Shown here in pieces: positions 7,600 to 56,874 of a DNA stretch of 56,874 bases. This DNA is from a virus. The position numbers and the translations under genes were made by a program. Every line of letters starts with the position of its first letter. Position 1 is the first letter of the stretch. The stretch covers positions 1-56,874 of IMG/VR virus record IMGVR_UViG_3300049491_000539. One strand, given 5' to 3'. The notes under the pieces are model-generated. The model was not told where the DNA came from and made no database searches. It worked only from the letters and a program-made list of their open reading frames with translations.

Positions 7600-8417
7600 C
7601 AACAAGAGAAGAAATCTTGTTGAAAATATCAAATCTTGAGAAAGAACTTTCTGCCGAAAAATCACAAGCAGACGGTGGAAAAATTCAAATTAATGGAAGC
7701 TTTGGAAAATTTGGAAATCGATGGTCCACACTTTATTCGCCGCAGCTTTTGATTCAGGTGACTATCACCGGTCAGCTTGCGTTGCTGATGCTCATTGAGC
7801 GACTTCATGAGGCACGAATTCCGGTTGTCAGCGCCAACACAGACGGCGTGGTGATAAAATGTCCTAAGTCACTTCAACTGCGAATGGGAGACGTGGTGGC
7901 TGGTTGGGAAATTGACACTGGTTTTGAAACTGAGGCGACTCAATATTCTGCGCTCTACAGCCGAGATGTGAACAACTACGTTGCCGTTAAGCATGATGGC
8001 ACGGCTAAGACCAAGGGCGCATATGCGGACCCAGGACTTTCAAAAAATCCGACAAATCAAATCTGCGTGGACGCGGTGATCGCAAAGATCACGAAGGGTG
8101 AGTCGATCTCCAAAACTATCCGAGAATGCACAGACATCAGGAAGTTCGTGACGATCCGCGCCGTCCGTGGTGGCGCGATCTGGGATGGTTTTTATCTTGG
8201 AAAAGCCGTCAGGTGGTATTATTCGAAAACATCAAACTCAGCCATTCATTACAAAATGCCGAACAAAACTGGAAACCACAACAAGGTTGCCAGAACGGAC
8301 GGTTGTCGACCGTTGATGAACTTGCCTGACGCGTTGCCGAGCGACGTGGACTTTGCTTGGTATATTAGGGAAGCGAGGTCAATTCTTGAAGATATTGGCT
8401 ATAATGGTGGTCTCTGA
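7596..8417 (+). CDS. Family B DNA polymerase, C-terminal fragment (motifs B and C)
   Basis: A 273-residue back half of the polymerase. After a ~27-residue charged helical leader (EEILLKISNLEKELSAEK) comes motif B, KIQINGSFGKFG (~29-40), then motif C, SANTDGVVIK (~79-88), and the thumb region. The exonuclease and motif A are absent here but present in the gene at 5850. ATG 7596 overlaps the endonuclease stop. The stop overlaps the ATG of the next gene (TGATG), so translation of the whole set is probably coupled. The leader and the tail of the first fragment both look helical and could pair, which would hold the two halves together. Confidence 0.85.
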   Translation: MTTREEILLKISNLEKELSAEKSQADGGKIQINGSFGKFGNRWSTLYSPQLLIQVTITGQLALLMLIERLHEARIPVVSANTDGVVIKCPKSLQLRMGDVVAGWEIDTGFETEATQYSALYSRDVNNYVAVKHDGTAKTKGAYADPGLSKNPTNQICVDAVIAKITKGESISKTIRECTDIRKFVTIRAVRGGAIWDGFYLGKAVRWYYSKTSNSAIHYKMPNKTGNHNKVARTDGCRPLMNLPDALPSDVDFAWYIREARSILEDIGYNGGL

Positions 8418-10191: not shown

Positions 10192-10228
10192 CCAACCTAT
10201 TGACGCGGATACCTTTCATGGTTAAATG

Positions 10229-10243
10229 TCAACTTAATGTTGA
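10229..10243. promoter_or_regulatory. Operator palindrome TCAAC-TTAAT-GTTGA
   Basis: A perfect 5+5 palindrome, 16 bases upstream of the start of the repressor-like gene. On the minus strand its flank reads GTTGACA. The location suggests autoregulation. Confidence 0.62.
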
Positions 10244-10259
10244 TATTTTAGAGGGTAAA

Positions 10260-10955
10260 ATGCTCGATAATCCCCGAAAAATTTTGGATAAGGAATTTGC
10301 CAAACGCTTGAATATGGCATGTGACAGCAACCCACATTGTCCGCCACTTCACCAAGGCAGACTAACTTGGCTTCGGAACGAGTTAAAGAGGCAGATAGGC
10401 TCAAAAGTCAGCGTCTCGATCGAGACGGTTCGAAAGTGGTTTTCAGGCGATTCAAAACCACGAACTGACAAGCTCAGACACATTGCACAGTTGTTAAAGA
10501 TTGACGAAGCTTGGTTGTCGCTCGGCACTATTCCTGAGCTTGAACTTGAGGAAAAGAAGGCCCGCGCTTTTTCAGTTGATGGAGCGGTCAGCGTCGTCAT
10601 AGGCGTGCTACAAATGAACGGTGCAAATTGTGCAGTCCCAGAAACGGATCACACCACCGATCTCCACATGATATACAAGGGAAAGCACCGCTCGTTGATA
10701 GTGTCGTTGGGGCGGCAGGTGGAGGGAAAATTCAAATTTTCAGTCAAAAATGACTATTTCATGAGTGCCGTAATAGCGGTGGTTCAGTTAGGTTTCAGCA
10801 AGTTTGATCTTTATATTTTACCAACAGAAATGATCCGATCTGCGGGACGGCCAAAGGGTGGGTATATTGAGGTTCTGGCAGAGAAGTCGGGGCAGGATTT
10901 TAAGGTTGGCGATCAAACTCTGATTAAGTTGAAGTCTCCCACTCAAATAGCGTGA
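10260..10955 (+). CDS. XRE-type repressor-like protein
   Basis: A 231-residue protein. Residues ~35-90 hold a helix-turn-helix (VSIETVRKWFSGDSKPRTDKLRHIAQLL, then KIDEAWLSLG), the style of phage CI-type regulators. The remaining ~140 residues (AVSVVIGVLQMNG; HRSLIVSLGRQV) are not LexA/S24 peptidase-like; I see no Ser-Lys protease pair. The chosen start is ATG 10260 with GAGGG upstream; earlier TTG/ATG starts would read through the operator. It is flanked by TCAAC-N5-GTTGA-type sites on both sides, and the integrase lies 1.8 kb downstream. It is the best candidate for the lysogeny repressor acting on the 15-bp palindromes. The C-terminal domain may sense a signal, but which is unknown. Confidence 0.72.
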   Translation: MLDNPRKILDKEFAKRLNMACDSNPHCPPLHQGRLTWLRNELKRQIGSKVSVSIETVRKWFSGDSKPRTDKLRHIAQLLKIDEAWLSLGTIPELELEEKKARAFSVDGAVSVVIGVLQMNGANCAVPETDHTTDLHMIYKGKHRSLIVSLGRQVEGKFKFSVKNDYFMSAVIAVVQLGFSKFDLYILPTEMIRSAGRPKGGYIEVLAEKSGQDFKVGDQTLIKLKSPTQIA

Positions 10956-11022: not shown

Positions 11023-12534
11023 TTGGTTGTCACTTATGGATCAGTTTGTAGCGGTATAGAAAGCGCGTCCATAGCTTGGGAACCTCTCGGCTGGCAACCA
11101 CTATGGTTCTCCGAAATCGAGCCATTCCCTTGCGCAGTTCTCAAACAACATTGGCCCGATGTCGTCAATTTGGGAGATATGCGACTTCTGCCGAAGCTTG
11201 TCTTGAATGGTGAAATTGACGCTCCTGATATTCTTGTCGGCGGCACACCGTGCCAAGGATTTTCCGTTGCCGGCCGGCGTGGTGGTTTGAAAGACCCACG
11301 TGGTCAACTGACGTTATCTTATGTGGAGTTGGCAGATGCAATTGACCAAAAGCGAGAACAGCGCGGGGACGAGCCTTGTGTTATTGTCTGGGAGAATGTC
11401 CCGGGCGTTTTCAGTGATAAAGGAAACGCCTTTGGCCACTTCCTTGCGTCCCTTGTCGGCGAAATCGTCGCGCTGGAACCACCAGGGGGAAGATGGTCAA
11501 ACGTTGGTTATGTGTCTGGACCCAAGAGATCAGCGGCGTGGATCGTCAAGGATGCCCAATATTTCGGAGTGGCCCAACGACGCCGCCGTGTGTTCGTTGT
11601 CGCAAGTGCTCGTGAGGGGTTCAACCCCGAAGAAGTATTGTTTGAGTTCGACGGCAGCCGTAGGGACGATGCACCGGAACGAACGCCGTGGCGCGAAGAT
11701 GCCAGCACAATTGAAGGAAGCGTTGATGGAAGTGGCGGGACCATTGTGGCAGCAAGAATGGTCGGCTTTGGCGGTTATGTGGAAGACGATATTGCTTCAA
11801 CATTGAAGTCACGAGATTACAAAGACGTCACAGACCTCATCGCATTCAACCAGTCTGGTTTTGCGCATTTTGTAGAGTCAGATGTCTGCTCCCCGATCCG
11901 ATCAGGTAACGCAAATGGAGACGGTGACGCGAGGTCGAGCACGCTATTGGCAATAGCCATTCAGGAGCGTGCCAGCAGCACGAATATGAGCGCTGGGCCG
12001 CAGGGGAAAGGTTGGCAGGAGGATGTGAGCTACACGCTGGAATCCCGTCACTCGGTGCAGTCTGTAGCCTATGCTTTTAGGGATGAAATGACACCCAAGT
12101 TCTCTTACGAGGTCACACCAACTTTGTTGACGACAAGTCCAACAGGCGGCGGTCATCCGATGCCAGTAGCCTTCAATTCACGAGAAGACACAGTTGTCTA
12201 TGGTGATGTGTCAGGGACGCTCGCGTCATCGAGTCCTCAAGCTCAGACGATTTATTTTGAGGGCGCTGGAAAATGGATAGTGCGCCGACTGATGCCTATT
12301 GAATGCGAGCGCCTCCAAGGATTTTCCGATCTACACACGTTAGTTTCATTTAAGGGGAAACTTGCTTTAGATAGTCCCCGCTATAAAGCGATTGGAAACA
12401 GCAAGGCTGTGCCGGTCGTTAGGTGGATTGGCCGTCGGATTCAACGAATGATGAGACAACTTGAGACAATAAAATACGGGAAACCGCCGTTTGAGATTTT
12501 ATTTGAAAAATTGACTGACGTTGAAAGTTTTTGA
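11023..12534 (+). CDS. DNA (cytosine-5) methyltransferase
   Basis: A 503-residue C5-MTase with ordered motifs: I (SVCSGIESASIAWEPLGW, residues ~6-23), IV with the catalytic Cys (GGTPCQGFSVAG, ~73-84), VI (WENVPG, ~122), VIII (QRRRRVF, ~188), and IX/X (RRLMPIECERLQGF; AIGNSKAVPVV) near the end. The long middle region (~225-415) is the target-recognition part seen in phage Dcm-type enzymes. I start it at TTG 11023, where GGAGA lies 7 bases upstream and the family N-terminus begins; a GTG at 10990 lacks support. It sits in the lysogeny region, apparently without a partner endonuclease, so self-protection against host restriction is the likely role. Sequence specificity cannot be read. Confidence 0.9.
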   Translation: MVVTYGSVCSGIESASIAWEPLGWQPLWFSEIEPFPCAVLKQHWPDVVNLGDMRLLPKLVLNGEIDAPDILVGGTPCQGFSVAGRRGGLKDPRGQLTLSYVELADAIDQKREQRGDEPCVIVWENVPGVFSDKGNAFGHFLASLVGEIVALEPPGGRWSNVGYVSGPKRSAAWIVKDAQYFGVAQRRRRVFVVASAREGFNPEEVLFEFDGSRRDDAPERTPWREDASTIEGSVDGSGGTIVAARMVGFGGYVEDDIASTLKSRDYKDVTDLIAFNQSGFAHFVESDVCSPIRSGNANGDGDARSSTLLAIAIQERASSTNMSAGPQGKGWQEDVSYTLESRHSVQSVAYAFRDEMTPKFSYEVTPTLLTTSPTGGGHPMPVAFNSREDTVVYGDVSGTLASSSPQAQTIYFEGAGKWIVRRLMPIECERLQGFSDLHTLVSFKGKLALDSPRYKAIGNSKAVPVVRWIGRRIQRMMRQLETIKYGKPPFEILFEKLTDVESF

Positions 12535-12796
12535 CGGTATTTTTGACGGTATTTTACAAAATAATCAACTTTTCACAATAAAATCAATGCTTATGGTGAA
12601 TGTCGGGTGCGCCACCAAACTCAAACATGTTGTATCACTTTGTCCAAAACTAACAGAATTTAGTAATTTTTTCAGTGATTTCTCCTGATATTCAAACTAT
12701 TTTGTAAAGCCAGTTCCCATACTGTCTCATTGCGTCTCAGAAAATTTACGGTATTGTTGGCGGTATCAGAAAATATCAATCAAAGTGATACCGTCA
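12532..12796. other. Candidate attP: tRNA-3'-end-like core flanked by integrase arm-type repeats
   Basis: The core candidate TGTCGGGTGCGCCA at 12601-12614 has the shape of a tRNA 3' end (T-stem, acceptor, CCA). Arm-type repeats of the form TNNCGGTAT flank it: TGACGGTAT at 12532-12540 and 12544-12552, TTACGGTAT at 12746-12754, TGGCGGTAT at 12758-12766, and an inverted ATACCGTCA at 12788-12796 against the integrase start. P4-type integrases with a DUF4102 arm-binding domain commonly use tRNA 3' ends. The 263-base interval has no gene. Two phased TGAGAC pairs also flank the core (12452 and 12724). Confidence 0.62.
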
Positions 12797-12797
12797 T

Positions 12798-13982
12798 ATG
12801 GCCTTAAATGACTTGCAGATTCGAAACATCAAACCGACTGGTAAACAGTTCAAGGTTCATGACGAGCGCGGGCTTTTTCTACGAATCAAACCCAATGGCT
12901 CCAAACTTTGGCAGATGGACTATCGATTTGCCGGTCTTCGAAAGACCATTTCATTCGGCGCATACCCGGAGCGAACGTTGGCTGAGGCCCGTGAAAAACG
13001 AGATCAGGCCCGCAAGCTAATCACCAACGACGTTGACCCTTTAGAACATAAAAAATCCAGCCGAGTTACCGTCGAAATGGGTGAAACTTTTGGCGATATT
13101 GCTGTTGAATATTTAGCTCAATGTGAGCGCGATCTGTCGCCAATAACCTACTTCAAATATGATTGGCTTCTTCGAAAATTGGCGAAGGCTCTGTGGAAAA
13201 TTCCTATTGATGAAGTAACTTCAAAAGACATTCTTGGCATACTTTTGGCGGTGGAAAATTCCGGTCGCAGGGATACGGCAATCACGTTGCGCTCAAGAAT
13301 TGGAGGTGTCTTCCGTTTCGCCATAGCGCGTCAGAGAGCCAAGTTTGATCCAACACAAGCGATTAAAAATGCTCTCAGGCCACCCAAGGTGAAGCACAGG
13401 GCTGCGCTTGTGGAAAGACGACCATTTGGCGGCTTACTAAGGTGTATAGACGAGTATGACGGTTGGCCGACATTGCGTCACGCTCTCAGGTTTGAAGCGC
13501 TTACTTTCCCTCGACCTGTTGAATTACGCAAGGCTGAATGGGTCGAATTCGACCTTGGTAATAAGGTCTGGCACATCCCGGAAGAGCGGATGAAGGTGCG
13601 TCGACCACACGATGTGCCTTTGTCTCGACAAGCCATTGACGTTCTATTGAATGTCAAGATCATCAGTGGCGCGGGTAGATTGGTGTTTCCGTCAATACGA
13701 TCAGCTGACAAAATACTTTCTGAAAACGCGCTTAACTCTGCTCTTCGCCGAATGGGGTTCACCAAGGATGAAGCCACGGCGCATGGGTTCAGGTCGAGCG
13801 CGAGCACCATATTAAATCAAGCTGGCTACCGCAGTGAAGTCATAGAAATGCAGCTTGCACATATCGACCACAACGAAGTCAGGCGATCCTATAACCGTGC
13901 TCAATATTGGCCTGAGCGGGTGAAGATGATGCAGAGTTGGGCCGATCTCATTGATGAAATGAAAAAGCCAACCGCCGATTAA
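12798..13982 (+). CDS. int: Tyrosine-type integrase (P4 family, DUF4102 N-terminus)
   Basis: A 394-residue P4-like recombinase of usual length. The N-terminal ~80 residues are the DUF4102 arm-DNA-binding domain (HDERGLFLRIKPNGSKLW; TISFGAYPERTLAEAR). The core-binding domain follows to ~200. Catalytic residues are visible: Arg in FPRPVELRKAEW (~238-240), Lys in RMKVRRPHDVPLS, HGFR (~329-332), the LAHID segment, and the nucleophile Tyr in RRSYNRAQYWPER (~365). The segment TFPRP replaces the common TGVRP but keeps the Arg. ATG 12798 directly abuts an inverted arm-type site, suggesting autoregulation. It integrates the phage at attB, probably a tRNA gene. Confidence 0.93.
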   Translation: MALNDLQIRNIKPTGKQFKVHDERGLFLRIKPNGSKLWQMDYRFAGLRKTISFGAYPERTLAEAREKRDQARKLITNDVDPLEHKKSSRVTVEMGETFGDIAVEYLAQCERDLSPITYFKYDWLLRKLAKALWKIPIDEVTSKDILGILLAVENSGRRDTAITLRSRIGGVFRFAIARQRAKFDPTQAIKNALRPPKVKHRAALVERRPFGGLLRCIDEYDGWPTLRHALRFEALTFPRPVELRKAEWVEFDLGNKVWHIPEERMKVRRPHDVPLSRQAIDVLLNVKIISGAGRLVFPSIRSADKILSENALNSALRRMGFTKDEATAHGFRSSASTILNQAGYRSEVIEMQLAHIDHNEVRRSYNRAQYWPERVKMMQSWADLIDEMKKPTAD

Positions 13983-14069: not shown

Positions 14070-14108
14070 GTAATCAACCAATGAGACAATATGATATGGA
14101 TTTAGACG

Positions 14109-14354
14109 ATGCCAGTTTCTGTTGATGAAGACATAGTTCTGTTGAGCGTTCCAGACACACTAGCGCTTCTGCCGTTCCGCAGACCCACCCTTTATCGAAA
14201 AATTAGGTCAGGTGAGTTTCCTCAGCCAGGTAGGTTTGGGGGACGTGTCTTTTTCTCAAAGAAGGAAGTTCAGGACTACATTCGCCGAGTCTTCAATAAT
14301 CGACCGAGCCGATCCGCAAAGATCATGGCTGACAACGAAGACCTGTTTGGTTGA
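14109..14354 (+). CDS. AlpA/HTH_17-type DNA-binding protein (excisionase-like)
   Basis: An 81-residue MerR-like winged-helix protein of the AlpA/HTH_17 kind: LSVPDTLALLPFRRPTLYRKIRSGEFPQPGRFGGRVFFSKKEVQDYI is the typical core (residues ~12-60). It lies directly after the integrase terminator and one base before the small terminase gene. It may be the recombination directionality factor, or a regulator of late genes. It ends with DNEDLFG, echoing the terminase small subunit's DDDDIFG end. Excisionase is the better guess from size and place but is not proven. Confidence 0.7.
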   Translation: MPVSVDEDIVLLSVPDTLALLPFRRPTLYRKIRSGEFPQPGRFGGRVFFSKKEVQDYIRRVFNNRPSRSAKIMADNEDLFG

Positions 14355-47299: not shown

Positions 47300-47502
47300 C
47301 ACAAATCTCCGTCGTGGCGCATGGCCCGTAAAATTGATTTCCGCATGGCCTGTTCAGGGTCATGATCGTGAATGATGCCGGTGCTCTCGAACGGCGCGAG
47401 CCTGACTTCACATGAATAGGGTCCACCCTCCGCACCGATTAGCGTGATGCTACGAATGTGTTTCTTTGACCTGAGTTCGCGCAAAAGCTCGGAGATGTTC
47501 AT
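47299..47502 (-). CDS. Small protein preceding the methyltransferase
   Basis: A 67-residue protein (NISELLRELRSKKHIRSITLIGAEGGPYSCEVRLAPFESTGI, then ILRAMRHDGDL). ATG 47502 overlaps the stop of a short membrane peptide, and its stop overlaps the methyltransferase start. The compact alpha-beta pattern is unrecognised. Strict coupling suggests production in balance with its neighbours. Confidence 0.62.
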   Translation of the reverse strand: MNISELLRELRSKKHIRSITLIGAEGGPYSCEVRLAPFESTGIIHDHDPEQAMRKSILRAMRHDGDL

Positions 47503-47603
47503 GATGCTGAGATGGTTGCGATAGCGATGTAGAGAACCGCCCAGATCATCCCGACCAATAAAAAAGCAGCGGTCACAAACAAGAGGAACGCGATTTGCTT
47601 CAT
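47499..47603 (-). CDS. 34-residue single-pass membrane peptide
   Basis: Starts at ATG 47603 overlapping the GapR stop (TGATG) and ends overlapping the next ATG. Sequence KQIAFLLFVTAAFLLVGMIW then AVLYIAIATISAS is almost wholly hydrophobic, one membrane helix. Being precisely tiled between two coupled genes argues it is translated. The function is unknown. Confidence 0.6.
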   Translation of the reverse strand: MKQIAFLLFVTAAFLLVGMIWAVLYIAIATISAS

Positions 47604-47881
47604 CACGCCATTCCCAACGCGTGCATATACAAATCAAGGATCGTCTCTTCCTCTTGACGAGTTGCCTGATCCTTCTTGCGCAGCCGAACGATGGTTCGCG
47701 CCGCCTTCGTGTCAAACCCCACCCCTTTCATCTCAGCGTAGACTTCCTTGATGTCATCGCTGATAGTCTTCTTGTCTTCCTCAAGCAGTTCGATGCGCTC
47801 GATGAAGGCGCGCAGCTGACCAGCCGCAACCGTGCTTGAATTCTCGCCGCCCATCAGGTCACTATCATCTCGATCTGACAT
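47603..47881 (-). CDS. GapR-like nucleoid protein (DUF2312)
   Basis: A 92-residue protein matching GapR/DUF2312 closely: [54 protein letters not shown] and [12 protein letters not shown]. GapR binds overtwisted DNA ahead of replication and transcription and is needed for normal cell-cycle progression in Caulobacter. ATG 47881 has AGGGA upstream; a GTG at 47896 is less likely. A palindrome variant lies at 47893-47907. The phage copy may support phage replication or compete with the host protein. Confidence 0.88.
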
Positions 47882-47892
47882 TGGTTGTCCCT

Positions 47893-47907
47893 TCACTGAA
47901 TAGTTGA
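47893..47907. promoter_or_regulatory. Operator variant TCACT-GAATA-GTTGA before gapR
   Basis: Same TCACT-N5-GTTGA form as at 53204, 55278 and (inverted) 14055. It sits between the HD phosphohydrolase stop (47909) and the GapR start. Confidence 0.45.
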
Positions 47908-47908
47908 T

Positions 47909-48499
47909 TCAACAGTCAAGCATTGCCTGACAAAGCTCGTTGTATGCGTCCATGAACATGCTTCTGGCGAGTTCAGGCATCCATCCGCCGATGTGGATTC
48001 CAAGAGGCTTTCCAGTGACACAGATATAGTCCTCAGTCGGGCGCATGAGCGCTGCCCATTCGTCGAAGATAATCCGGTCATCCACGTCCTTGATGAGATC
48101 ATTCATGATAAACGGAAGCTCGAACCGCTCCATAAACAAACGGCTGATCTGGTCGTCCTTACCACGGAAGTAGCTCATTCCGACTTGATGCTTGATGGGT
48201 CTGCAAACGTCGCCAATCACATATTCTGGACCGTCATGAAGCAGCGCAACCATCATCACGACCACATCGTCATGACTGAATTTTGCGGTCGCGCCGATGA
48301 GGTTTCTGATCTGCCGCTTGACCTGGCGGAAGACGTAAACGCTGTGCTCGGCTACTGAATAGAATTTGTTCGTCGCGCCGTTGTAACGGCAGATCATGGA
48401 AAGATGATGCGCCACGTCATCAATGACGATCATCTCGGCCGTCGGATTGATGAGGTCAAACTTGACGCCGCTACGGGTCATCATCCAATTCGTGCTCAT
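47909..48499 (-). CDS. HD-domain phosphohydrolase (YfbR-like nucleotidase)
   Basis: A 196-residue HD-fold protein: YSVAEHSVYV (first His), ALLHDGPEYVIGDV (HD), and a later VDDRIIFDEW. The arrangement is that of phage and bacterial YfbR-type 5'-deoxynucleotidases, which adjust dNTP pools. It starts with ATG 48499, overlapping the GcrA stop. It may remodel nucleotides during infection. The substrate is inferred. Confidence 0.8.
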   Translation of the reverse strand: MSTNWMMTRSGVKFDLINPTAEMIVIDDVAHHLSMICRYNGATNKFYSVAEHSVYVFRQVKRQIRNLIGATAKFSHDDVVVMMVALLHDGPEYVIGDVCRPIKHQVGMSYFRGKDDQISRLFMERFELPFIMNDLIKDVDDRIIFDEWAALMRPTEDYICVTGKPLGIHIGGWMPELARSMFMDAYNELCQAMLDC

Positions 48500-49035
48500 G
48501 CCCTGATCCTCGGTTTTGAAATTTCAGTTCCGCGCTTGCGATGGTGACTGCAATAAGGTGAGCCTTCGTCTGACTGGTGACTGCAAAAGGCGTGTGGCTC
48601 CATCCTGGCAGCTTCTCCAACAGGCCATTTACAGGTCTTCTCAGTCAGATCGACGAGCGATAGGGCCAATATGTTGCGGTCATATTCTTCAGCGCTGACC
48701 TGAAAAACTACAATCTCCGTCGAAGGTGGCGCTGGCTGTTTCGTGGCGCTGTGGTTTCTGAAACCGCGATGAGCCAATGGGCGAAGACCGTCTGTAATTA
48801 CAGCGAGTTTTACTTCTCGCGTTTTTGTTGAACCAGGTGGTTTCTTTGCGCAAAACCCAATAGCCGCTAAAGTTTTGTTTCTCGCAACGATCCCAATGAT
48901 CGCGTTTCGAGTGGTCTCACGTCCTGCTGCATTGATCCTGGCTGCAATTCTGGACGCGCTTTGACCTTCACGCAGCAGCACTGCTATCTGGTCAATTTCG
49001 TCCTGCTGCCAGGCTTTGGCGGAAATTCTTTGCAT
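48496..49035 (-). CDS. GcrA-like cell-cycle transcription regulator
   Basis: A 179-residue homologue of GcrA. The N-terminal DNA-binding region reads WQQDEIDQIAVLLREGQSASRIAARI ... TTRNAIIGIVARNKTL (~9-56), paralleling GcrA's W-x-L-W-x-G-x-SASQIA ... VTRNAVIGKVHRLGL. The C-terminal region TCKWPVGEAARMEPHAFCSHQSDEGSPYCSHHRKRG (~133-168, split here only for clarity) matches the GcrA sigma70-binding end with its CKWP and Cys/His residues. GcrA activates promoters bearing methylated GANTC in alphaproteobacteria. A palindromic operator sits 11 bases before ATG 49035. Confidence 0.88.
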   Translation of the reverse strand: MQRISAKAWQQDEIDQIAVLLREGQSASRIAARINAAGRETTRNAIIGIVARNKTLAAIGFCAKKPPGSTKTREVKLAVITDGLRPLAHRGFRNHSATKQPAPPSTEIVVFQVSAEEYDRNILALSLVDLTEKTCKWPVGEAARMEPHAFCSHQSDEGSPYCSHHRKRGTEISKPRIRA

Positions 49036-50020: not shown

Positions 50021-50256
50021 TTCTGTCGTTCCTCAAGTCTCTTATTGCGTTCAACACGCCGAGCGCGTTTCTGCTCAGCAGCTGACATTGCGGCAGCGTG
50101 GTCCCTAACTGGTGGAACAAATATTGTTGCTTTACGCGTCTGGCGTTTAGAGCATTTTTCCCGCTGTCCAATGTCATCCACTCGACGTGAGAAGGAGTGA
50201 GCACTGCCCATCACCAATGCCGCCATTGCAGCTGCAAACTTCCCAAACTGACTCAT
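50017..50256 (-). CDS. Small basic protein with N-terminal signal-like segment
   Basis: A 79-residue protein. The start SQFGKFAAAMAALVMGSAHS looks like a weak signal or membrane segment, followed by a strongly basic tail (EQKRARRVERNKRLEERQK). It overlaps both neighbours by 1-4 bases. The function is unknown. Confidence 0.55.
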   Translation of the reverse strand: MSQFGKFAAAMAALVMGSAHSFSRRVDDIGQREKCSKRQTRKATIFVPPVRDHAAAMSAAEQKRARRVERNKRLEERQK

Positions 50257-50795
50257 TACAATTCCTCGATGTCAAGCTTGTCGCGGATACCATCATAGTC
50301 CCAGACCTTCATGCGGATGATCACGAAGCCCATGTCGCGCTTGCTTTCATCAATCCGCGAAGCTTCAAAGGCCGAACGCAATTGGTCATGCAGGTTGACG
50401 CGTTTCTTCTTTTCGCCCTGCTCAATGTGCTTGCGGGTTACGCGCTCGCGGCCGGCGGATTTTGCTGCCTCAGAGGCTGCTGTGAGCGTTTCTACAGCTG
50501 CTTGGCTGTTTCCCGCCTTGGTGGCGACCTCGGCAGCCAGCGTGGCGGATACCTGGCCGCTGCGCACCATTGCTTTCAGTTCTTCGGGCTGCGCTTGTAG
50601 CGTCAACAGCTGGGTTATCCAATTTTGACTTTTTCCAGCCTTGGCGGCGATGTCCTTTTCGCTCCAACCGAGGTCGATCAGTTTCTTGAAGACCTTGCCT
50701 TGCTCGAAGGGTGACTGGCCCAAGTTCCTTGTGTAGGATGCAGCGTATTCCGTCGAGCTTGGGTGAACACAGAACTGGAAACCGCAAGGTCTCAA
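50256..50795 (-). pseudogene. ParB/KorB-like protein lacking its N-terminal domain
   Basis: The open frame encodes 179 residues, of which ~22-110 match the helix-turn-helix core of phage/plasmid ParB-like proteins: RNLGQSPFEQGKVFKKLIDLGWSEKDIAAKAGKSQNWITQLLTL, then EELKAMVRSGQVSATLAAEV. The usual ~80-residue ParB catalytic/CTP domain before this is missing. The preceding 5' DNA instead encodes a DNA ligase start in another frame. No good ribosome site serves this frame (TTG 50795). I judge it a deletion product that may no longer be made, though a frameshifted fusion is conceivable. Confidence 0.65.
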
Positions 50796-50886: not shown

Positions 50887-50901
50887 TCAACAAAAAGTTG
50901 A
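50887..50901. promoter_or_regulatory. Operator palindrome TCAAC-AAAAA-GTTGA
   Basis: Perfect 5+5 palindrome. Its left edge reads GTTGACA on the minus strand, a -35-like element for the minus-strand operon. A separate perfect palindrome, AAACGAATTCGTTT, lies at 50960-50973. Confidence 0.65.
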
Positions 50902-51021: not shown

Positions 51022-51060
51022 CTACCTCAATTCGTGAGACGTTTTGAGGTAGCATGAGAC
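51022..51060. repeat. 10-bp-phased TGAGAC repeats overlapping an inverted repeat
   Basis: TGAGAC at 51035, TGAGGT at 51045 and TGAGAC at 51055, spaced exactly 10 bases. They overlap a 9-bp inverted repeat CTACCTCAA/TTGAGGTAG (51022-51030, 51044-51052). The array lies 56-81 bases before the start of the plus-strand membrane protein gene; TTGACA follows at 51071. Confidence 0.65.
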
Positions 51061-51115
51061 TGATTGTGGTTTGACACAATTTGATACAACATGAGAAAAT
51101 TAGTTGGAGGATAAA

Positions 51116-51433
51116 ATGAACGGATGGGATAGAGACGAGAATGCCTATCAGCCCAACATCGGAATAGGCGGACGAATTGTGCTCTTGTTGATCGTGGGAT
51201 TAATTTTTGTCAGTTCGTTTGGATGGGTGTTTGTTTGTTTAGAGGTCGACGCGCATCTGCTGACAGACTTTCAAGATCGAAGTAGCTTTATCCTGGTTGC
51301 TGCCAATATCACCGACAATGAAGCGACCTTGAGAGAACACACCATAGTATGGCGACATTCCTACGTATCCGCCAAAACTGTTTCTCGCGTTGACCAATCC
51401 GCAGATCACCACAACTCCATCCAAATCCTTTGA
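51116..51433 (+). CDS. Small membrane protein, C-terminus antisense to a lipoprotein gene
   Basis: A 105-residue frame with an excellent GGAGG upstream of ATG 51116. Residues ~15-40 form one membrane segment (GGRIVLLLIVGLIFVSSFGWVFVC). The last ~65 residues lie opposite the minus-strand lipoprotein gene and have no independent character, so the gene may originally have ended earlier. It is one of the few rightward genes in the right arm, behind the phased TGAGAC array. Expression in the lysogen, perhaps for membrane-based exclusion, is a guess. Confidence 0.55.
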   Translation: MNGWDRDENAYQPNIGIGGRIVLLLIVGLIFVSSFGWVFVCLEVDAHLLTDFQDRSSFILVAANITDNEATLREHTIVWRHSYVSAKTVSRVDQSADHHNSIQIL

Positions 51434-51622
51434 TGCCGACATTGCGCCGAAACGTGCGCTATCTGGGTCTTTCAGACCTGCAAGCACAGCCGATTGAACT
51501 GTGCCTTTTTCAACTGCTGACAATGAATAGGCTGAGCCAGTCTTTAAGGGTGGTGTTGAGACTCTGGTTGAGCAGTTGCTCAGCGCGAGAACAGCCAACA
51601 AGGACAAATATACTGGCCTCAC
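51239..51622 (-). CDS. Secreted lipoprotein of unknown function
   Basis: A 127-residue protein with a lipoprotein signal and lipobox (LAVLALSNC, Cys 17). The mature part contains LKDPDSARFG and VVICGLVNARNSFGGYVGMSPYYGVF, resembling small exported alphaproteobacterial proteins with the NSFGGY pattern. The start is GTG 51622 with GGAG upstream. It may act in lysogenic conversion or superinfection exclusion; this is inference from its export signal in an accessory region. It overlaps the plus-strand gene by 195 bases. Confidence 0.7.
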   Translation of the reverse strand: MRPVYLSLLAVLALSNCSTRVSTPPLKTGSAYSLSAVEKGTVQSAVLAGLKDPDSARFGAMSASKDLDGVVVICGLVNARNSFGGYVGMSPYYGVFSQGRFIVGDIGSNQDKATSILKVCQQMRVDL

Positions 51623-52203
51623 ATCAATTACTCCAAACCGACTGGTTGCAGATTAACGTGTAGGAGTTAAGGAATTTAACCAAAAAGGTTGCGCTTTCAC
51701 TTTGAATTTTTGGACGGCATTGATCACCAAAGTAGTTGAAAATTTGGACGGGACGACTCGCCTAAGTAGTGAGTGAACTCAGAAATTTTGGCCGCATATC
51801 TGAGCGTTTCAGATGTTAAACGAGCACAGTCGAAATTCAAAACGATTTACCCTCAAACCTATTTCTGAAATGGTAATGTAATAACGTAACAATTACATTT
51901 TATTGACAATCCGCCCATGACTCACGCCTATAGAAGCGTAGTCGCTAGGTCTGCCTTCACGCGGTTTGGTTGGGTTCAACTCTCAGCGGATGCTTCATAT
52001 CCTGCCAGATCATGCGCGTTACCAGCCCGCACAAGAGGGCGTTCGCCGGTCAAACAAAAACCCGCCTAAGCTGGTAATTGTGCCTCTCAGCGTGAGCCTT
52101 GCTCTTACCATGGGGTTAGGCCAAATTGGCGACCGTCCAGTCGCGTCCTTCGAAGCGGCTCTATCGACTGGACGCGGGTTAATACGCTGATTCTCAGGCA
52201 AAC
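51623..52203. other. 580-base gene-poor stretch with duplicated hairpins
   Basis: No convincing gene. It contains an 8-bp inverted repeat AATGTAAT/ATTACATT (51875-51899), a -35-like TTGACA at 51903, a 30-base direct repeat with one mismatch (52051-52080 and 52199-52228, each a terminator-like hairpin) and a perfect 10-bp inverted repeat (52134-52143, 52165-52174). A 74-codon frame at 51966 lacks support. A non-coding RNA is possible. Confidence 0.5.
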
Positions 52204-52222
52204 AAAAACCCGCCTAAGCGGG
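52204..52222 (-). terminator. Terminator of the right-arm minus-strand genes
   Basis: On the minus strand: stem CCCGC/GCGGG (52209-52213, 52218-52222), loop of 4, then five U residues. It follows the 56-residue coiled-coil gene ending at 52251. A weaker copy lies at 52056-52074. Confidence 0.8.
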
Positions 52223-52250
52223 TAATTGCGTGAAGTGCGTTGGATTAGGA

Positions 52251-52421
52251 TCAATTAGGTTTTGCGTCCAATTCCTTGAGCTTCAAACCCCATTTGGTCA
52301 AATCATCAAATAGCTCGGCTTTCCGTTTCTCCAGCGGATCAATCTGCGCTTGAAGCCGGTTAATGTCAGCTTGTCGTTCGGCAATGACGAGTCGAATGTC
52401 TTCTTTGTCCATGCGGTTCAT
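52251..52421 (-). CDS. 56-residue coiled-coil protein
   Basis: Starts at ATG 52421 with AAGG upstream and ends at TGA 52251, then a terminator. Sequence: NRMDKEDIRLVIAERQADIN, RLQAQIDPLEKRKAELFDDL, TKWGLKLKELDAKPN; heptads of hydrophobic residues indicate a helical hairpin or coiled coil. No family recognised. As the last gene of the right-arm operon it is well bounded. Confidence 0.7.
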   Translation of the reverse strand: MNRMDKEDIRLVIAERQADINRLQAQIDPLEKRKAELFDDLTKWGLKLKELDAKPN

Positions 52422-52433
52422 GACGTTTAACCT

Positions 52434-52682
52434 TCAATCCCAATCACTCACCAAATCCTTGCTGGTGAGCTCACCATCAAAATAACAATATTGCGCCTGG
52501 TCGTATCCGTTGGCGTCTGAACCAATCAAATAGATTGACCTTGGCCACAAATCATCATCCGGTATTTCACGGCTCATTTTTGACGCCTTCCGGCGTGTCG
52601 ACTGCAAAGAAAGCCCGGGTTTTAATTCGAGTGTTACCGTTCCAATTGGTGCTTTTTCATACTCAATGCGAAACTTGTGCAT
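52434..52682 (-). CDS. Unknown small protein, 82 residues
   Basis: HKFRIEYEKAPIGTVTLELKPGLSLQSTRRKAS and DDDLWPRSIYLIGSDANGYDQAQYCYFDGELTSKD; a mixed alpha-beta small domain without recognised motif. I choose ATG 52682, which has GAGGG upstream. It is one of a run of small orphan genes. Confidence 0.62.
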   Translation of the reverse strand: MHKFRIEYEKAPIGTVTLELKPGLSLQSTRRKASKMSREIPDDDLWPRSIYLIGSDANGYDQAQYCYFDGELTSKDLVSDWD

Positions 52683-52693
52683 GATTTTAACCC

Positions 52694-52828
52694 TCAATTC
52701 AACAGCGGCTTAAGCGCGGCCGTCACGATGATCAACAGAATAATGAAGCCGAAACTGGCGTCATTGGCCAGTGCTTGCACGATTGCAATGAAACCGAAAA
52801 TCCACAATAGCGGGGACAGTTTCACCAT
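52694..52828 (-). CDS. 44-residue membrane peptide
   Basis: From ATG 52828 to TGA 52694: VKLSPLLWIFGFIAIVQALA, then SFGFIILLIIVTAALKPLLN. Two hydrophobic stretches may form a small hairpin. It begins two bases after the preceding stop and fits the close packing of this operon. Confidence 0.6.
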   Translation of the reverse strand: MVKLSPLLWIFGFIAIVQALANDASFGFIILLIIVTAALKPLLN

Positions 52829-52830
52829 GA

Positions 52831-53193
52831 TTAAAGAATCTGCCAAACTTCATAACCGGCTTCCCGAATTCTGCGCTCCCATTCATAACCAGGACGTGAA
52901 TCTAGCGCCGCTTTGAAGGCGTCAATGTGAGCCTGATATTCGGGCGGAATGACAGCTGTAATCGCGGCAACAGCGGATTCACATGCAGCGCTTTGCTTGT
53001 TGTAACCGTAGCCACCCGCGTATGATCGCACCATTGTCGCACCTGAAACGTGAAAATAACAGTATATCCTTCCCGCCCCGTCGGCTGGAAACTTGAATGC
53101 AACAGTGGCGACCTTTTGGCCGTCCTTCACAATCACATATCCAGCCGAGTGTAGGAATGATTTATGGTAAAGATCATAGATGTTCGTTCTCAT
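52831..53193 (-). CDS. Unknown protein, 120 residues
   Basis: RTNIYDLYHKSFLHSAGYVIVKDGQKVATVAFKFPADGAGRIYCYFHVSGATMVRSYAGGYGYNKQSAACESAV: an alpha-beta fold with Gly/Tyr-rich turns. ATG 53193 overlaps the preceding gene's stop. A regulatory palindrome variant lies 11 bases upstream. No function recognised. Confidence 0.65.
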   Translation of the reverse strand: MRTNIYDLYHKSFLHSAGYVIVKDGQKVATVAFKFPADGAGRIYCYFHVSGATMVRSYAGGYGYNKQSAACESAVAAITAVIPPEYQAHIDAFKAALDSRPGYEWERRIREAGYEVWQIL

Positions 53194-53948
53194 AATTGAG
53201 TCCTCACTGATAAGTTGATTGTTGAATATAGATCGGGACGGCTTGTTTCCAAAGAACGGGCAAATGATGTTGCCGCCATTTCCTTTTCGAGCTTGTTCAA
53301 CTCAGCACGCTTCATTGCCAGATCATCACAAACTTCTTGCCCAACTTCTAGGCAATATTTGTAGTCGCCAATGAAACCCCAACAGGATTCCGCGTGGTCA
53401 TCATCCAGCGTTGACAAGATGTAACCGTAAACTTCGCCGTCAAGAATTGACTGAACAATTGAGCAATCCGCATCGTCGCAAACATTACCAGCGTAAGCCG
53501 TGAACTCGGCTTCACGCCAAACACAATATATACGGCTGGAGTCGTTTGTGCGCATCAGCTTAACGCGCAAATCCCATAAGCCGAGGTGCTTCAAAATCCC
53601 GAAATACCGTGACTCTTCGCTCTTATAGAAGCGCCGGAATTCATCCGGATAGCACTCATTTTGGACGCCAAAACGCTTTGCCGTTTTGACTAGCTCGAAG
53701 TTGTTTTCGGCGCATAAACCCGCCAAAATGTCAGCACGCTTACCCTGGTCAAGAGCGCGGATTGTGTCGGCGCTTGGACATTCGTCCATGGCGTCATAAA
53801 GGACGCTGGAGCGTCCATACCGCTCAAAACTGATAACCGCCATTGGGCTGAAAAGATGATCAGAGATTGGCCGATATTCATCATCGACAACAACTTTACA
53901 AGTCACGTCAGAATTCTCGTAAGTCTCTACAACGTCATAATTAGACAT
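53190..53948 (-). CDS. Unknown acidic protein, 252 residues
   Basis: Begins SNYDVVETYENSDVTCKVVVDDEYRPISDHLF and contains clusters of Asp/Glu (VCDDADCSIVQ; TLDDDHAESCWG). Many Cys and Tyr residues but no clear metal motif. No membrane segment. It may belong to the plasmid/phage accessory protein pool; an anti-defence role is only a suggestion based on acidity and context. Confidence 0.65.
   Translation of the reverse strand: MSNYDVVETYENSDVTCKVVVDDEYRPISDHLFSPMAVISFERYGRSSVLYDAMDECPSADTIRALDQGKRADILAGLCAENNFELVKTAKRFGVQNECYPDEFRRFYKSEESRYFGILKHLGLWDLRVKLMRTNDSSRIYCVWREAEFTAYAGNVCDDADCSIVQSILDGEVYGYILSTLDDDHAESCWGFIGDYKYCLEVGQEVCDDLAMKRAELNKLEKEMAATSFARSLETSRPDLYSTINLSVRTQL
53204..53218. promoter_or_regulatory. 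Operator variant TCACT-GATAA-GTTGA
   Basis: Lies within the 3' end of the acidic protein gene, 11 bases upstream of the next start (53193). Confidence 0.42.
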
Positions 53949-53974
53949 AGCTGCATTCTCTTTAGATGTTGATT

Positions 53975-54325
53975 TTATTGACCTGGTGCGAAATAGAAGC
54001 GGAAATATTCCGCCTTGTGAGATTGGCCGGCCGTCTCAGCTGCGCGGGCTATTTCTTCCCATGACATATCCGGCTTGTTCTCGAATTCACCCGTCAATCC
54101 GCGCAACCAATAGTCGCCAACGTCGGTAATGGGATTTTCAAGAAACACGCTGCAATTGTCACAATTTTGTGGATAGTCAGCTTCGCCGCCACCTTCCGAA
54201 TATGGACCTTGCGGGAACGTGTCAGAGTCGCCATCATCCTCAATACCGCTGCATTCACAGGAAAGCAGAAGATCATCCGCGCAATCTTCGCAGTATAGCG
54301 CTGCTTTGAACATGTAAGCTTTCAT
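53975..54325 (-). CDS. Cys-rich, zinc-finger-like accessory protein
   Basis: A 116-residue protein. Cysteine pairs CEDCADDLLLSCEC (~13-26) and CDNCSVFLENPITD (~55-68) could bind zinc. The pattern GPYSEGGGEADYPQNCDNCSVFLENP recurs in rhizobial plasmid and phage proteins, which supports the host group. Its stop region precedes a GTTGA-containing spacer. The function is unknown. Confidence 0.72.
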   Translation of the reverse strand: MKAYMFKAALYCEDCADDLLLSCECSGIEDDGDSDTFPQGPYSEGGGEADYPQNCDNCSVFLENPITDVGDYWLRGLTGEFENKPDMSWEEIARAAETAGQSHKAEYFRFYFAPGQ

Positions 54326-54465
54326 GACGTTTGGTCCTTAAGCTCAGACTTAAATTCAATAATCGCCTCTCTTTTTGTGTAGAAAAAATATTGACGGGTG
54401 AACAAATAACCATTGATCACAGTGGAAATCCGCCAAGCACCTTGTGAAGTCTTTTCAATAGTCAT
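54322..54465 (-). CDS. 47-residue unknown protein
   Basis: TIEKTSQGAWRISTVINGYL, FTRQYFFYTKREAIIEFKSE; a short beta-alpha element resembling small phage beta-hairpin proteins. I choose ATG 54465, with GGAG upstream, overlapping the preceding gene by 11 bases. Its stop overlaps the Cys-rich protein's ATG. Confidence 0.6.
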   Translation of the reverse strand: MTIEKTSQGAWRISTVINGYLFTRQYFFYTKREAIIEFKSELKDQTS

Positions 54466-55267
54466 GATGCGTGTCTCCAAAAAGGTCCAGCGTTTGCGGA
54501 CAAAGAGGAAGCGGCGCGACGTAGCCAGGATCATTGAATTTCAAATCCTGCACAAGCAATTCGCGCCGCTCGCAACGCTTTTGCTCATATACTTTCCAAT
54601 CGACGGCGCTTTCCCATTCTTGTGACAATCCATCTGGATAGTCCTGATAGATGTTCATTTCCAAGTCTTTAGGATCGTCACCAGCTTGTGTCATGACAAT
54701 CTCAATGACGGCTAAAAGCAACGTTCCAACTTCGTTATGATCCCATTGCCGCAAAGGCTTGCGAAGGAATTCCGAAACTTCATTTGAGTAGGATGAAATG
54801 AAGCCGTCATAAGACGTGAAGCGACCTTTGATAGTGTCGCGCAACACGTCATGATCGTTCGCCATGGAAATAGCAAAAAGCCGCTTCACGTCGGCAAGGC
54901 TGATTTTGCAGAAAATTCTATCAGTGCTGAAATTGTATTCACGCGGCGAGTCCAGCACTTCAAACTTCAAGGATTTCAAATCAAGCTGGTATTCGTCTTT
55001 CAACTGATATCGGAACACGTCGACGTAACCCTTGGCGACGGCAACACTTGCTGCCTGATAGTTCGTCACGTCAAACAGGATTTTATGTAGAGTTGACTCG
55101 TCAAGGCGTAATTCGACTGGTTGCTTCATTTCGTCGGAATAGTCGTTTGACTCGTCAAGCTCCCATTCCACATGACGGTTAGCGTTTTCGTCTAGTTCTG
55201 AATCCCATATTGAACCGTAAAAGCCGGAAAACGGGATTGTTGTTTCAAGGATGATAGGCTTGGACAT
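54455..55267 (-). CDS. Unknown acidic protein, 270 residues
   Basis: A strongly acidic protein (WDSELDENANRHVEWELDESNDYSDEM near the start) with helical middle segments and a C-terminal PLCPQTLDLFGDTHHDY. ATG 55267 follows an operator variant at 55278. No enzyme motif is visible. The charge pattern is compatible with a DNA mimic, but that is speculative. Confidence 0.65.
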   Translation of the reverse strand: MSKPIILETTIPFSGFYGSIWDSELDENANRHVEWELDESNDYSDEMKQPVELRLDESTLHKILFDVTNYQAASVAVAKGYVDVFRYQLKDEYQLDLKSLKFEVLDSPREYNFSTDRIFCKISLADVKRLFAISMANDHDVLRDTIKGRFTSYDGFISSYSNEVSEFLRKPLRQWDHNEVGTLLLAVIEIVMTQAGDDPKDLEMNIYQDYPDGLSQEWESAVDWKVYEQKRCERRELLVQDLKFNDPGYVAPLPLCPQTLDLFGDTHHDY

Positions 55268-55277
55268 TGTTGAATTC

Positions 55278-55292
55278 TCACTAAAAAGTTGA
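55278..55292. promoter_or_regulatory. Operator variant TCACT-AAAAA-GTTGA
   Basis: Lies in the 33-base gap between two minus-strand genes, 11 bases before ATG 55267, the same distance seen at 49046 and 53204. Confidence 0.48.
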
Positions 55293-55300
55293 ATTATAGG

Positions 55301-55747
55301 TCAAAAGCAACAACGCGGACAGTGTTGATTACCGCTGAAATACTTTATTGCCTCATTCCAGATTTCACGATGCACGTCGTCAGGTAGACGTTCTGACTCG
55401 TCAATTTCATCGTCGACGTCTATGCTGATTTCAACGGTCTCAGAAACACGGTCCCCATAGGACTCATGGTCAATGAAACCGAAATAGGTATCGTCAACTG
55501 ACTCGTATTCCCATTCACCATTGCGGTCTATAAACTCGTTAAGTGCATCATCTTTTCCATCTTTGGCGATAAACAGATTCTGCAAACCATGTGCGAACGA
55601 TGATGCTTGAACGCTGCATAGGTGAGTAGTTTCGCCTTTCATCACAAGATACAACCCGAAAGCTTTCTCAGTGTGCGGGGGAAGCTCACCATAGAATTCA
55701 GTCTCATTGTTGGCGAAAGTGAAAAATTCCCGTGTAACTGTTGTCAT
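55301..55747 (-). CDS. Unknown acidic protein, 148 residues
   Basis: Acidic protein (SVDDTYFGFIDHESYGDRVSETVEISIDVDDEIDESERLPDD) ending in FSGNQHCPRCCF, a C-x2-CC cluster. ATG 55747 has GAGGG seven bases upstream. No recognised domain. It belongs to the right-arm run of small acidic genes. Confidence 0.65.
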   Translation of the reverse strand: MTTVTREFFTFANNETEFYGELPPHTEKAFGLYLVMKGETTHLCSVQASSFAHGLQNLFIAKDGKDDALNEFIDRNGEWEYESVDDTYFGFIDHESYGDRVSETVEISIDVDDEIDESERLPDDVHREIWNEAIKYFSGNQHCPRCCF

Positions 55748-55757
55748 GATCATTCCC

Positions 55758-56408
55758 TCAAATCAGTTCCACACGCTCAGCCCAAAGCCAAGCTGCATTC
55801 CACAAGTCACAATCCTCTTGTGACGGTATGACGTTCTCGCGTCCTTTGACCTTCCGGAAAGCGTCGGCCATGAACACGTTAGCATCGCAGAAATCGTTTG
55901 CGCTAAGATTGGGCTTAGCGAGCTTCATAACTTCAAACTTCTCAGAACCTAGATAGTTCAAAAGCAAGTTGGCGAACTCGAACGCGATAGCCTGAATCTC
56001 AGCAATACCGTTCAATGTGAAAGATGAATCATTCCCCACAAAAGTATGCAGAACGTTCCGATAGAGATCGCCGCGCCAATCGTTGAAAGCAGGTCCGGTA
56101 AGCTCATTCTGCATTACCCCATAATAGTGGATTAGAGCCTCAGCTAGGCTGTCTGTTGTGCAACATGTCTCAGGGTAGCAACATGTCTCAGGGTAGCGAG
56201 AGAGTATGAACCGTCCTTGCGCGTCATCATTGTTGTCAACAGCGCGTAAGTCAGGGTTCTTGTGCTGACACCATAGAATCCAGCCTTTATTATCTCCACC
56301 TATGGGCAAGAGAGCGGGTGAGCCGTCATTGTGCCACGATGAGTCAGTGAAGCCGTGAAGCACGGGCAGAATATAGTCAAAGTCTGGAAACTCAGTGCGA
56401 TAGGTCAT
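55758..56408 (-). CDS. Unknown protein, 216 residues, with an 18-bp tandem duplication
   Basis: Contains SWHNDGSPALLPIGGDNKGWILWCQHKNPDL and a duplicated YPETCCYPETCC caused by a perfect 18-base tandem repeat at 56160-56195. The C-terminal half is helical with Trp pairs (DLWNAAWLWAERVELI). ATG 56408 overlaps the stop of the 50-residue gene upstream. No function recognised. Confidence 0.65.
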   Translation of the reverse strand: MTYRTEFPDFDYILPVLHGFTDSSWHNDGSPALLPIGGDNKGWILWCQHKNPDLRAVDNNDDAQGRFILSRYPETCCYPETCCTTDSLAEALIHYYGVMQNELTGPAFNDWRGDLYRNVLHTFVGNDSSFTLNGIAEIQAIAFEFANLLLNYLGSEKFEVMKLAKPNLSANDFCDANVFMADAFRKVKGRENVIPSQEDCDLWNAAWLWAERVELI

Positions 56409-56557
56409 GATGTGTGAGCCTTCCTGTAGAGCGCGACCAGTGCAGCGCCAGCGGACGTCGACGCGACTGTAACTAACTTAGCCTTCACCCGCTCACGGAT
56501 GATTGCGCGTATTAGGGCGTCCACATCGAAGCTTAATAGGGGTTGATTGCTAGTCAT
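56405..56557 (-). CDS. 50-residue leader-gene protein of the right-arm operon
   Basis: From ATG 56557 (AGGA upstream) to TGA 56405: TSNQPLLSFDVDALIRAIIR, ERVKAKLVTVASTSAGAALV, ALYRKAHTS. It is a basic helical protein overlapping the next start by four bases. It is the first gene after the operator at 56607, so it is probably the promoter-proximal gene. Confidence 0.62.
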   Translation of the reverse strand: MTSNQPLLSFDVDALIRAIIRERVKAKLVTVASTSAGAALVALYRKAHTS

Positions 56558-56606
56558 TATGTGAGTCCTTGTGTCTGTTTACACCCTACATTCTATAGGT
56601 GATTTG

Positions 56607-56621
56607 TCAACAAATAGTTGA
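56607..56621. promoter_or_regulatory. Operator palindrome TCAAC-AAATA-GTTGA at the head of the right-arm operon
   Basis: Perfect 5+5 palindrome 50 bases before ATG 56557. On the minus strand it continues as GTTGACA, a -35-like element, with TATAGAAT further down. It resembles the site at 3225. Confidence 0.65.
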
Positions 56622-56750
56622 TTTTATTATCGGTTATTTGAAAGAAAAGTGACTTCATTTGAGGGTGAGCGGATAGCCGTGTTGACGGGTGGCAGGGTGT
56701 ATATGTGGCCTATGTTGAGCCGTGCATCACACCACCAGGGTGATACGTAT

Positions 56751-56826
56751 TGAGACTTAATGAGACGCCGTTAGTCAGCGTCATACATCATAACATTAGC
56801 AGAGACTTAGTGAGCCTGTATGAGAC
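56751..56826. repeat. Array of TGAGAC hexamers on a 10-bp grid
   Basis: TGAGAC at 56751, 56761 and 56821, with variants AGAGAC at 56801 and TGAGCC at 56811. All five start positions fall on the same 10-base register. The surrounding 250 bases (56622-56874) contain no gene. Confidence 0.7.
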
Positions 56827-56874
56827 GGCTTCACTGTGTGCGGGTGGCTCCGGGTCCTTCCCAGCGTTTGTTCC

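What the first reader, a model, noticed from the sequence alone, without database searches (positions are those of the whole stretch)
51022..56826. TGAGAC hexamers repeated at exact 10-bp spacing at several control regions
TGAGAC-N4-TGAGAC occurs at 12452/12462, on the opposite strand at 12724/12734, at 51035/51045(variant)/51055, and at 56751/56761/56801(variant)/56811(variant)/56821, all on a 10-base register. A single copy with a weak partner 10 bases on lies at 14082, before the AlpA-like gene. The spacing puts each hexamer on the same DNA face, as expected for cooperative binding by an excisionase- or Cox-like protein. Pairs at this spacing on both sides of attP and again in gene-free control regions are hard to explain by chance.
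Basis: seen in the sequence. Interest (0 to 1): 0.76.

Follow-up and report, generated by a model that had tools for sequence, protein, structure and literature searches.

The report
Excisionase-type operator arrays in temperate phage
A virus of bacteria carries a six-letter DNA word repeated at exactly one helix turn at four control regions, most likely the landing pads of the small protein that cuts the virus back out of its host chromosome; this is a new example of a known kind of switch, but the same word recurs next to similar genes in unrelated bacteria.

Summary
Scoring every place in the window for three TGAGAC boxes in a row at 10-bp steps gives eight windows scoring at least 15 of 18 (0.08 expected). 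All lie in four places: both arms of attP, directly before the HTH_17/AlpA-like gene, 51035-51097, and 56741-56826. Other spacings give almost nothing. The window is a temperate relative of the Casjensviridae (RcSalem, RHph_X2_30) with the order repressor, methylase, integrase, Xis-like gene, terminase.

The integrase's own arm sites are different boxes (TGACGGTA), so TGAGAC belongs to another protein. The best candidate is the 81-aa protein at 14109-14354, whose predicted fold is closest to excisionases (GIsul2 Xis, RdfS, TorI, Pukovnik Xis). Phage 186 Apl has six-bp operators in direct repeat 10-11 bp apart at attP and at its control region, so this works like Apl/Cox: excision factor plus regulator.

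Beyond the window, TGAGAC arrays with unlike linkers recur beside integrases, HTH_17 genes and some Fis-type regulators in several phyla, often with an R-A-T-L-Y-R-like recognition helix. Two islands with strong arrays show no HTH_17 gene, so the binder is not proven in general. No binding was measured.

The parts
12452..12467 (+). TGAGAC pair at 10 bp, outer P arm of attP (inside 3' end of methylase gene)
   Evidence: exact copies, (triple score 15/18)
12714..12739 (-). TGAGAC, TGAGAC, TGGGAA triple at 10 bp, integrase-proximal P' arm of attP
   Evidence: triple score 16/18; same place as arrays in L179, L182, L208, L347
12532..12551 (+). integrase arm-type boxes TGACGGTA x2, 12 bp apart (P arm)
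   Evidence: same boxes before related integrases, e.g. L278, L284
12746..12765 (+). integrase arm-type boxes TTACGGTA and TGGCGGTA (P' arm)
12789..12796 (-). inverted arm-type box TACCGTCA just before int start
   Evidence: the same layout over int starts in L260-L284
12603..12614 (+). candidate attP core TCGGGTGCGCCA, identical to the 3' end of an alphaproteobacterial tRNA-Arg
   Evidence: (L271); no attB/attL of this phage was found
12798..13982 (+). tyrosine integrase (Arm-DNA-bind_3, Phage_int_M, Phage_integrase)
14082..14107 (+). TGAGAC-TGATAT-TTAGAC triple at 10 bp before the Xis-like gene
   Evidence: triple score 15/18
14109..14354 (+). 81-aa HTH_17/AlpA-like protein, recognition helix RRPTLYRK, likely excisionase and regulator
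51035..51060 (+). TGAGAC-TGAGGT-TGAGAC triple
   Evidence: score 16/18
51072..51097 (+). TGACAC-TGATAC-TGAGAA triple, second copy of the 25-bp unit 37 bp on
   Evidence: score 15/18
56741..56776 (+). TGATAC-TGAGAC-TGAGAC-TTAGTC boxes at 10 bp
   Evidence: scores 17 and 16 of 18
56801..56826 (+). AGAGAC-TGAGCC-TGAGAC triple, 60 bp (six turns) after the first triple
   Evidence: score 16/18
50887..50901 (.). TCAAC-N5-GTTGA palindrome, candidate repressor operator, 134 bp from the 51035 array
56607..56621 (.). TCAAC-N5-GTTGA palindrome, candidate repressor operator, about 120 bp from the 56741 array
10200..10955 (+). CI-like repressor gene (likely ATG 10260), palindrome 10229-10243 in front

Best explanation
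The TGAGAC boxes are operators of the phage's excisionase-like protein (14109-14354). One protomer would bind each hexamer; with a 10-bp step all hexamers face the same side of the helix, so protomers line up head to tail and bend the DNA. At attP the arrays lie on both sides of the core and next to the integrase arm sites; binding there would favour excision and tune int expression. The triple before its own gene would give self-limitation. The double triples at 51035-51097 and 56741-56826 lie beside candidate repressor-controlled promoters and would let the same protein act as a lysis-lysogeny regulator. Shown: the arrays, their excess, their places, the separate integrase sites, the predicted excisionase fold. 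Inferred: binding, bending, the direction of regulation.
For: Blind triple scan: only these four regions. Integrase arm boxes are a separate class, both here and in elements that also carry TGAGAC arrays. The protein is HTH_17/AlpA-like; best structure matches are excisionases 8c3t (probability 1.00), RdfS 8dgl (0.99), TorI 1z4h (0.94), Pukovnik Xis 4j2n (0.84), and the regulator BldC. It is the only plausible regulator in the window with an R-x-T-L-Y-R helix. A partial relative with helix SRATLYR has TGAGAC x3 (18/18) beside the homologous primase. L041 has a TGAGAC pair just upstream of an HTH_17 gene; Bacteroidales elements have triples 28-74 bp before one. Helix motif within 300 bp: 14 of 56 array loci with unlike linkers, 1 of 57 with identical linkers, 0 of 24 controls (Fisher p 2e-4 for the first two). 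Apl and RdfS precedents.
Against: No binding data. RcSalem and RHph_X2_30 lack TGAGAC arrays. Two alphaproteobacterial islands with strong arrays show no HTH_17 gene in about 65 kb. The helix motif was chosen after seeing the first cases and the loci are partly related; many R-S-T-I-Y-R HTH_17 genes have no array nearby. Fis-type regulators also sit beside such arrays, so the hexamer is not private to excisionases.
Confidence: 0.76

Rival explanations
1. The boxes are arm-type sites of the integrase, like lambda P'1-P'2-P'3.
For: Tandem 10-bp copies between a tRNA 3' end and int in L179, L182, L208, L347, inverted on the other arm in the window.
Against: Related integrases have a different class of arm boxes (GGTA or GGCC type, 11-12 bp apart, inverted copy over the int start), present in the window as TGACGGTA and matching in kind the published IntS arm consensus TGKTGGTATC; arrays also lie far from att.
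Confidence: 0.07
2. Another phage regulator, such as the CI-like protein (10200-10955) or the ParB/KorB-like protein (50256-50795), binds the boxes, and their presence at attP serves int control only.
For: Arrays lie near candidate operators and divergent genes; Fis-type regulators elsewhere sit beside TGAGAC arrays.
Against: The CI-like protein has its own likely operator, TCAAC-N5-GTTGA, also in front of its own gene; ParB-type proteins usually read palindromes (own knowledge); neither shares the helix motif.
Confidence: 0.12
3. A host protein reads the boxes.
For: Arrays recur in elements of several phyla and in two islands without an HTH_17 gene.
Against: In most of the 3-4 Mb genomes searched the exact pair is found only at the mobile element, so a host regulon is unlikely.
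Confidence: 0.04
4. Chance or tandem-repeat slippage.
For: Raw counts of such triples in public contigs are inflated by slippage: a control hexamer gives 31 hits against 65.
Against: Linkers between the window's boxes differ everywhere; expected 0.08 against 8 observed, all in control regions.
Confidence: 0.01

Closest known systems
Apl of coliphage 186 and Cox of P2-like phages
   Same: Six-bp (Apl) operators in direct repeat one turn apart at attP and at the early control region; small protein with both excision and regulatory roles (PMC7498355).
   Different: Here arrays lie on both attP arms, before the xis gene and at two further regions; hexamer TGAGAC; P4-type integrase; phage is Casjensviridae-like.
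RdfS of ICEMlSymR7A
   Same: wHTH fold, binds attP near int and its own promoter; integrase arm boxes TGKTGGTATC resemble TGACGGTA here (PMC11963761).
   Different: No consensus motif was found for RdfS; here the hexamer is sharp.
Temperate Casjensviridae RcSalem and RHph_X2_30
   Same: Gene order helicase, HTH regulator, integrase, Xis-like gene, (methylase), terminase; RcSalem has AGGGAC/AGAGAC boxes 10 bp apart in the outer attP arm.
   Different: No TGAGAC triples; their Xis helices read SRTQIYR and SRPTIYR.

Membership tests
Excisionase (recombination directionality factor) operators of Apl/Cox/Xis type | direct repeats about one helix turn apart | tested here: met
   spacing scan
Excisionase (recombination directionality factor) operators of Apl/Cox/Xis type | located at att next to integrase arm sites | tested here: met
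   12452-12467 and 12714-12739 lie beside integrase boxes 12532-12551 and 12746-12765
Excisionase (recombination directionality factor) operators of Apl/Cox/Xis type | small wHTH protein encoded by the element, with excisionase fold | tested here: met
   (Foldseek probability high, E-values weak: best 9e-3)
Excisionase (recombination directionality factor) operators of Apl/Cox/Xis type | the protein binds the repeats cooperatively and bends DNA | not testable with these tools
   needs protein and DNA
Excisionase (recombination directionality factor) operators of Apl/Cox/Xis type | protein needed for excision | not testable with these tools
   needs a lysogen
   present beside the primase in the partial relative L062 record; absent or diverged in RcSalem and RHph_X2_30
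Integrase arm-type sites | same box class as arm sites of related integrases | tested here: not met
   TGAGAC-type pair before 1 of 30 related integrases; TGACGGTA-type boxes are the arm sites

The most novel reading that the evidence does not exclude
One recognition code, an R-A/P-x-L/I/W-Y-R helix reading GTCTCA/TGAGAC in 10-bp tandem, is shared by excisionases (HTH_17) of unrelated mobile elements and by some Fis-type regulators across phyla, so that excisionase operators and their proteins could be paired from sequence alone.
Probability: 0.3. Interest if true: 0.7.

Novelty: new member of a known kind. Interest (0 to 1): 0.5.

Why it matters
It gives a temperate Casjensviridae-type phage a complete predicted excision and lysogeny switch: excisionase operators, integrase arm sites, attP core and repressor operators in one map. 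Excisionases are known for loose binding without a clear consensus; a sharp hexamer that recurs in several phyla beside like proteins would make it possible to test how these proteins choose their sites and to annotate them from sequence.

Tried and rejected
Integrase arm-site reading: rejected after surveying 30 related integrases. Terminase (pac/cos) reading: some arrays lie beside small-terminase genes, but attP and xis positions do not fit and terminase is common on phage contigs. CII-like activation (direct repeats around a -35): no consistent -10 at a fixed distance; the one promoter-like match (51071-51100) leaves almost no leader. Raw excess of TGAGAC triples in public contigs: only about twice a control hexamer (65 against 31); the linker-divergence test is significant only for strong divergence (26 of 121 against 0 of 24, p 0.008; at the weaker cut 18 of 52 against 4 of 24, p 0.17). 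Prospective test of the helix code on about 30 alphaproteobacterial HTH_17 loci: mostly R-S-T-I-Y-R helices without arrays; the one R-A-T-L-W-R case is next to a broken integrase, so it tests nothing. Searches for the 51104 product, the primase and the Xis protein in viral contigs gave no relatives. Literature search for TGAGAC with excisionase found nothing relevant in titles or abstracts.

Full report
What was checked. The window is a whole linear IMG/VR virus record of 56,874 bases. TGAGAC is present at all coordinates named. Three exact same-strand pairs at 10 bp are found, none in 60 simulations. A scan for three boxes at 10-bp steps on both strands, scored out of 18, gives 8 windows at 15 or more (0.08 expected) and 10 at 14 or more (0.67 expected). 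Every one lies in attP, before the gene at 14109, at 51035-51097 or at 56741-56826. At other steps from 7 to 24 the count at 15 or more is 0, except 18, 20 and 24 (2, 3 and 1); 20 is the double step.

What the phage is. Portal, terminase and replication genes are closest to Casjensviridae. RcSalem and RHph_X2_30 are temperate relatives with the same order of helicase, HTH regulator, integrase, Xis-like gene and terminase. The integrase is P4-type with Arm-DNA-bind_3. A 12-base match to a tRNA-Arg 3' end lies at 12603-12614 and is the likely attP core.

Two classes of site at attP. Thirty related integrases (28-54% identical) from alphaproteobacterial genomes, most of them behind a tRNA 3' end, mostly carry their own boxes of GGTA or GGCC type, 11-12 bp apart, with an inverted copy over the int start. 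The window has TGACGGTA boxes at 12532, 12544, 12746 (variant), 12758 (variant) and inverted at 12789. These match in kind the published IntS arm consensus TGKTGGTATC (PMC11963761). Elements with TGAGAC arrays before int also have separate arm boxes. So TGAGAC is not the integrase's site. RcSalem has AGGGAC and AGAGAC boxes 10 bp apart in the outer arm of its attP, beyond its integrase boxes, as in the window.

The likely reader of the boxes. The protein at 14109-14354 is HTH_17/AlpA-like. Its AlphaFold2 model (mean pLDDT 79; about 90 over the core) is closest to the GIsul2 excisionase, RdfS, BldC, TorI and Pukovnik Xis. A triple of boxes ends just before its start codon. Phage 186 Apl has six-bp operators in direct repeat 10-11 bp apart at attP and between its early promoters, and is both excisionase and regulator (PMC7498355). 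The pattern here is the same in kind.

Beyond the window. The triple TGAGAC-N4-TGAGAC-N4-TGAGAC has 65 hits in viral contigs and at least 119 in genomes; a control hexamer has 31 in viral contigs, so many hits are plain tandem repeats. Arrays whose linkers differ are the informative ones. They lie within 31-215 bp of integrases in L051, L075, L179, L182 and L208, and 40-74 bp before HTH_17 genes in L053, L067, L145, L162, L167 and L209. In 3-4 Mb genomes the exact pair is confined to the element in nearly all cases (G009 is an exception with repeat families). An independent survey of 385 alphaproteobacterial genomes gave 6 with a triple at one mismatch or less, one of them again next to an integrase and a tRNA-Leu. 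In Desulfovibrio-class genomes three arrays lie beside Fis-type regulators with the helix RATLYR. A helix of this kind occurs within 300 bp of 14 of 56 arrays with unlike linkers, 1 of 57 with identical linkers and 0 of 24 controls. The motif was set after seeing some cases and several loci are related, so this is a lead.

A partial relative. The L062 record carries homologues of the window's Xis-like, terminase, primase, exonuclease, polymerase, helicase and CI-like genes (about 35-57% identical), an Xis-like helix SRATLYR, and TGAGAC boxes beside the primase, three of them exact. In the window the 56741-56826 arrays lie at the record's right end and the primase at its left end, so the two ends may join there; both also have TTTTGGCAACC-like repeats and GGGTCCTTCC. 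The L062 record is a mosaic with other phage genes, so it supports one of the four places only.

Limits. No binding data exist here. Two islands with strong arrays have no HTH_17 gene in about 65 kb. The direction of regulation at 51035 and 56741 is a guess; candidate repressor operators TCAAC-N5-GTTGA lie 120-134 bp away in both cases.

Noticed in passing
3225, 10229, 49046, 50887, 56607 (exact); 50842, 10960 and others with one mismatch: A second genome-wide motif, palindrome TCAAC-N5-GTTGA, lies before gene starts including the CI-like gene; likely the phage repressor's operator. Similar palindromes occur in the L062 record (3551, 29943).
   Followed up: partly
1-370: Repeated TTTTGGCAACC words at the left end of the record, downstream of the primase; iteron- or cosB-like, also in the L062 record as TTTTGGCTACC.
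   Followed up: partly
56852-56861 and record ends: GGGTCCTTCC near the right end resembles the lambda cosQ word (from memory), and the RcSalem record also starts just before its primase; the record may end at or near cos.
   Followed up: partly
5850-8417: DNA polymerase gene split in two by an HNH endonuclease gene (6940-7599).
   Followed up: no
45905-49035: Leftward operon with a GcrA-like cell-cycle regulator (48496-49035) and an N6/N4 DNA methylase (45905-47302), suggesting an alphaproteobacterial host.
   Followed up: no
L257 32785-33000 (RcSalem gp100): Record annotates a 71-aa stand-alone Arm DNA-binding domain protein near the right end of RcSalem.
   Followed up: no
L308, L309, L310: TGAGAC arrays beside Fis-type HTH regulator genes (helix MGRATLYRKLKELG) in three Desulfovibrio-class genomes.
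   Followed up: partly
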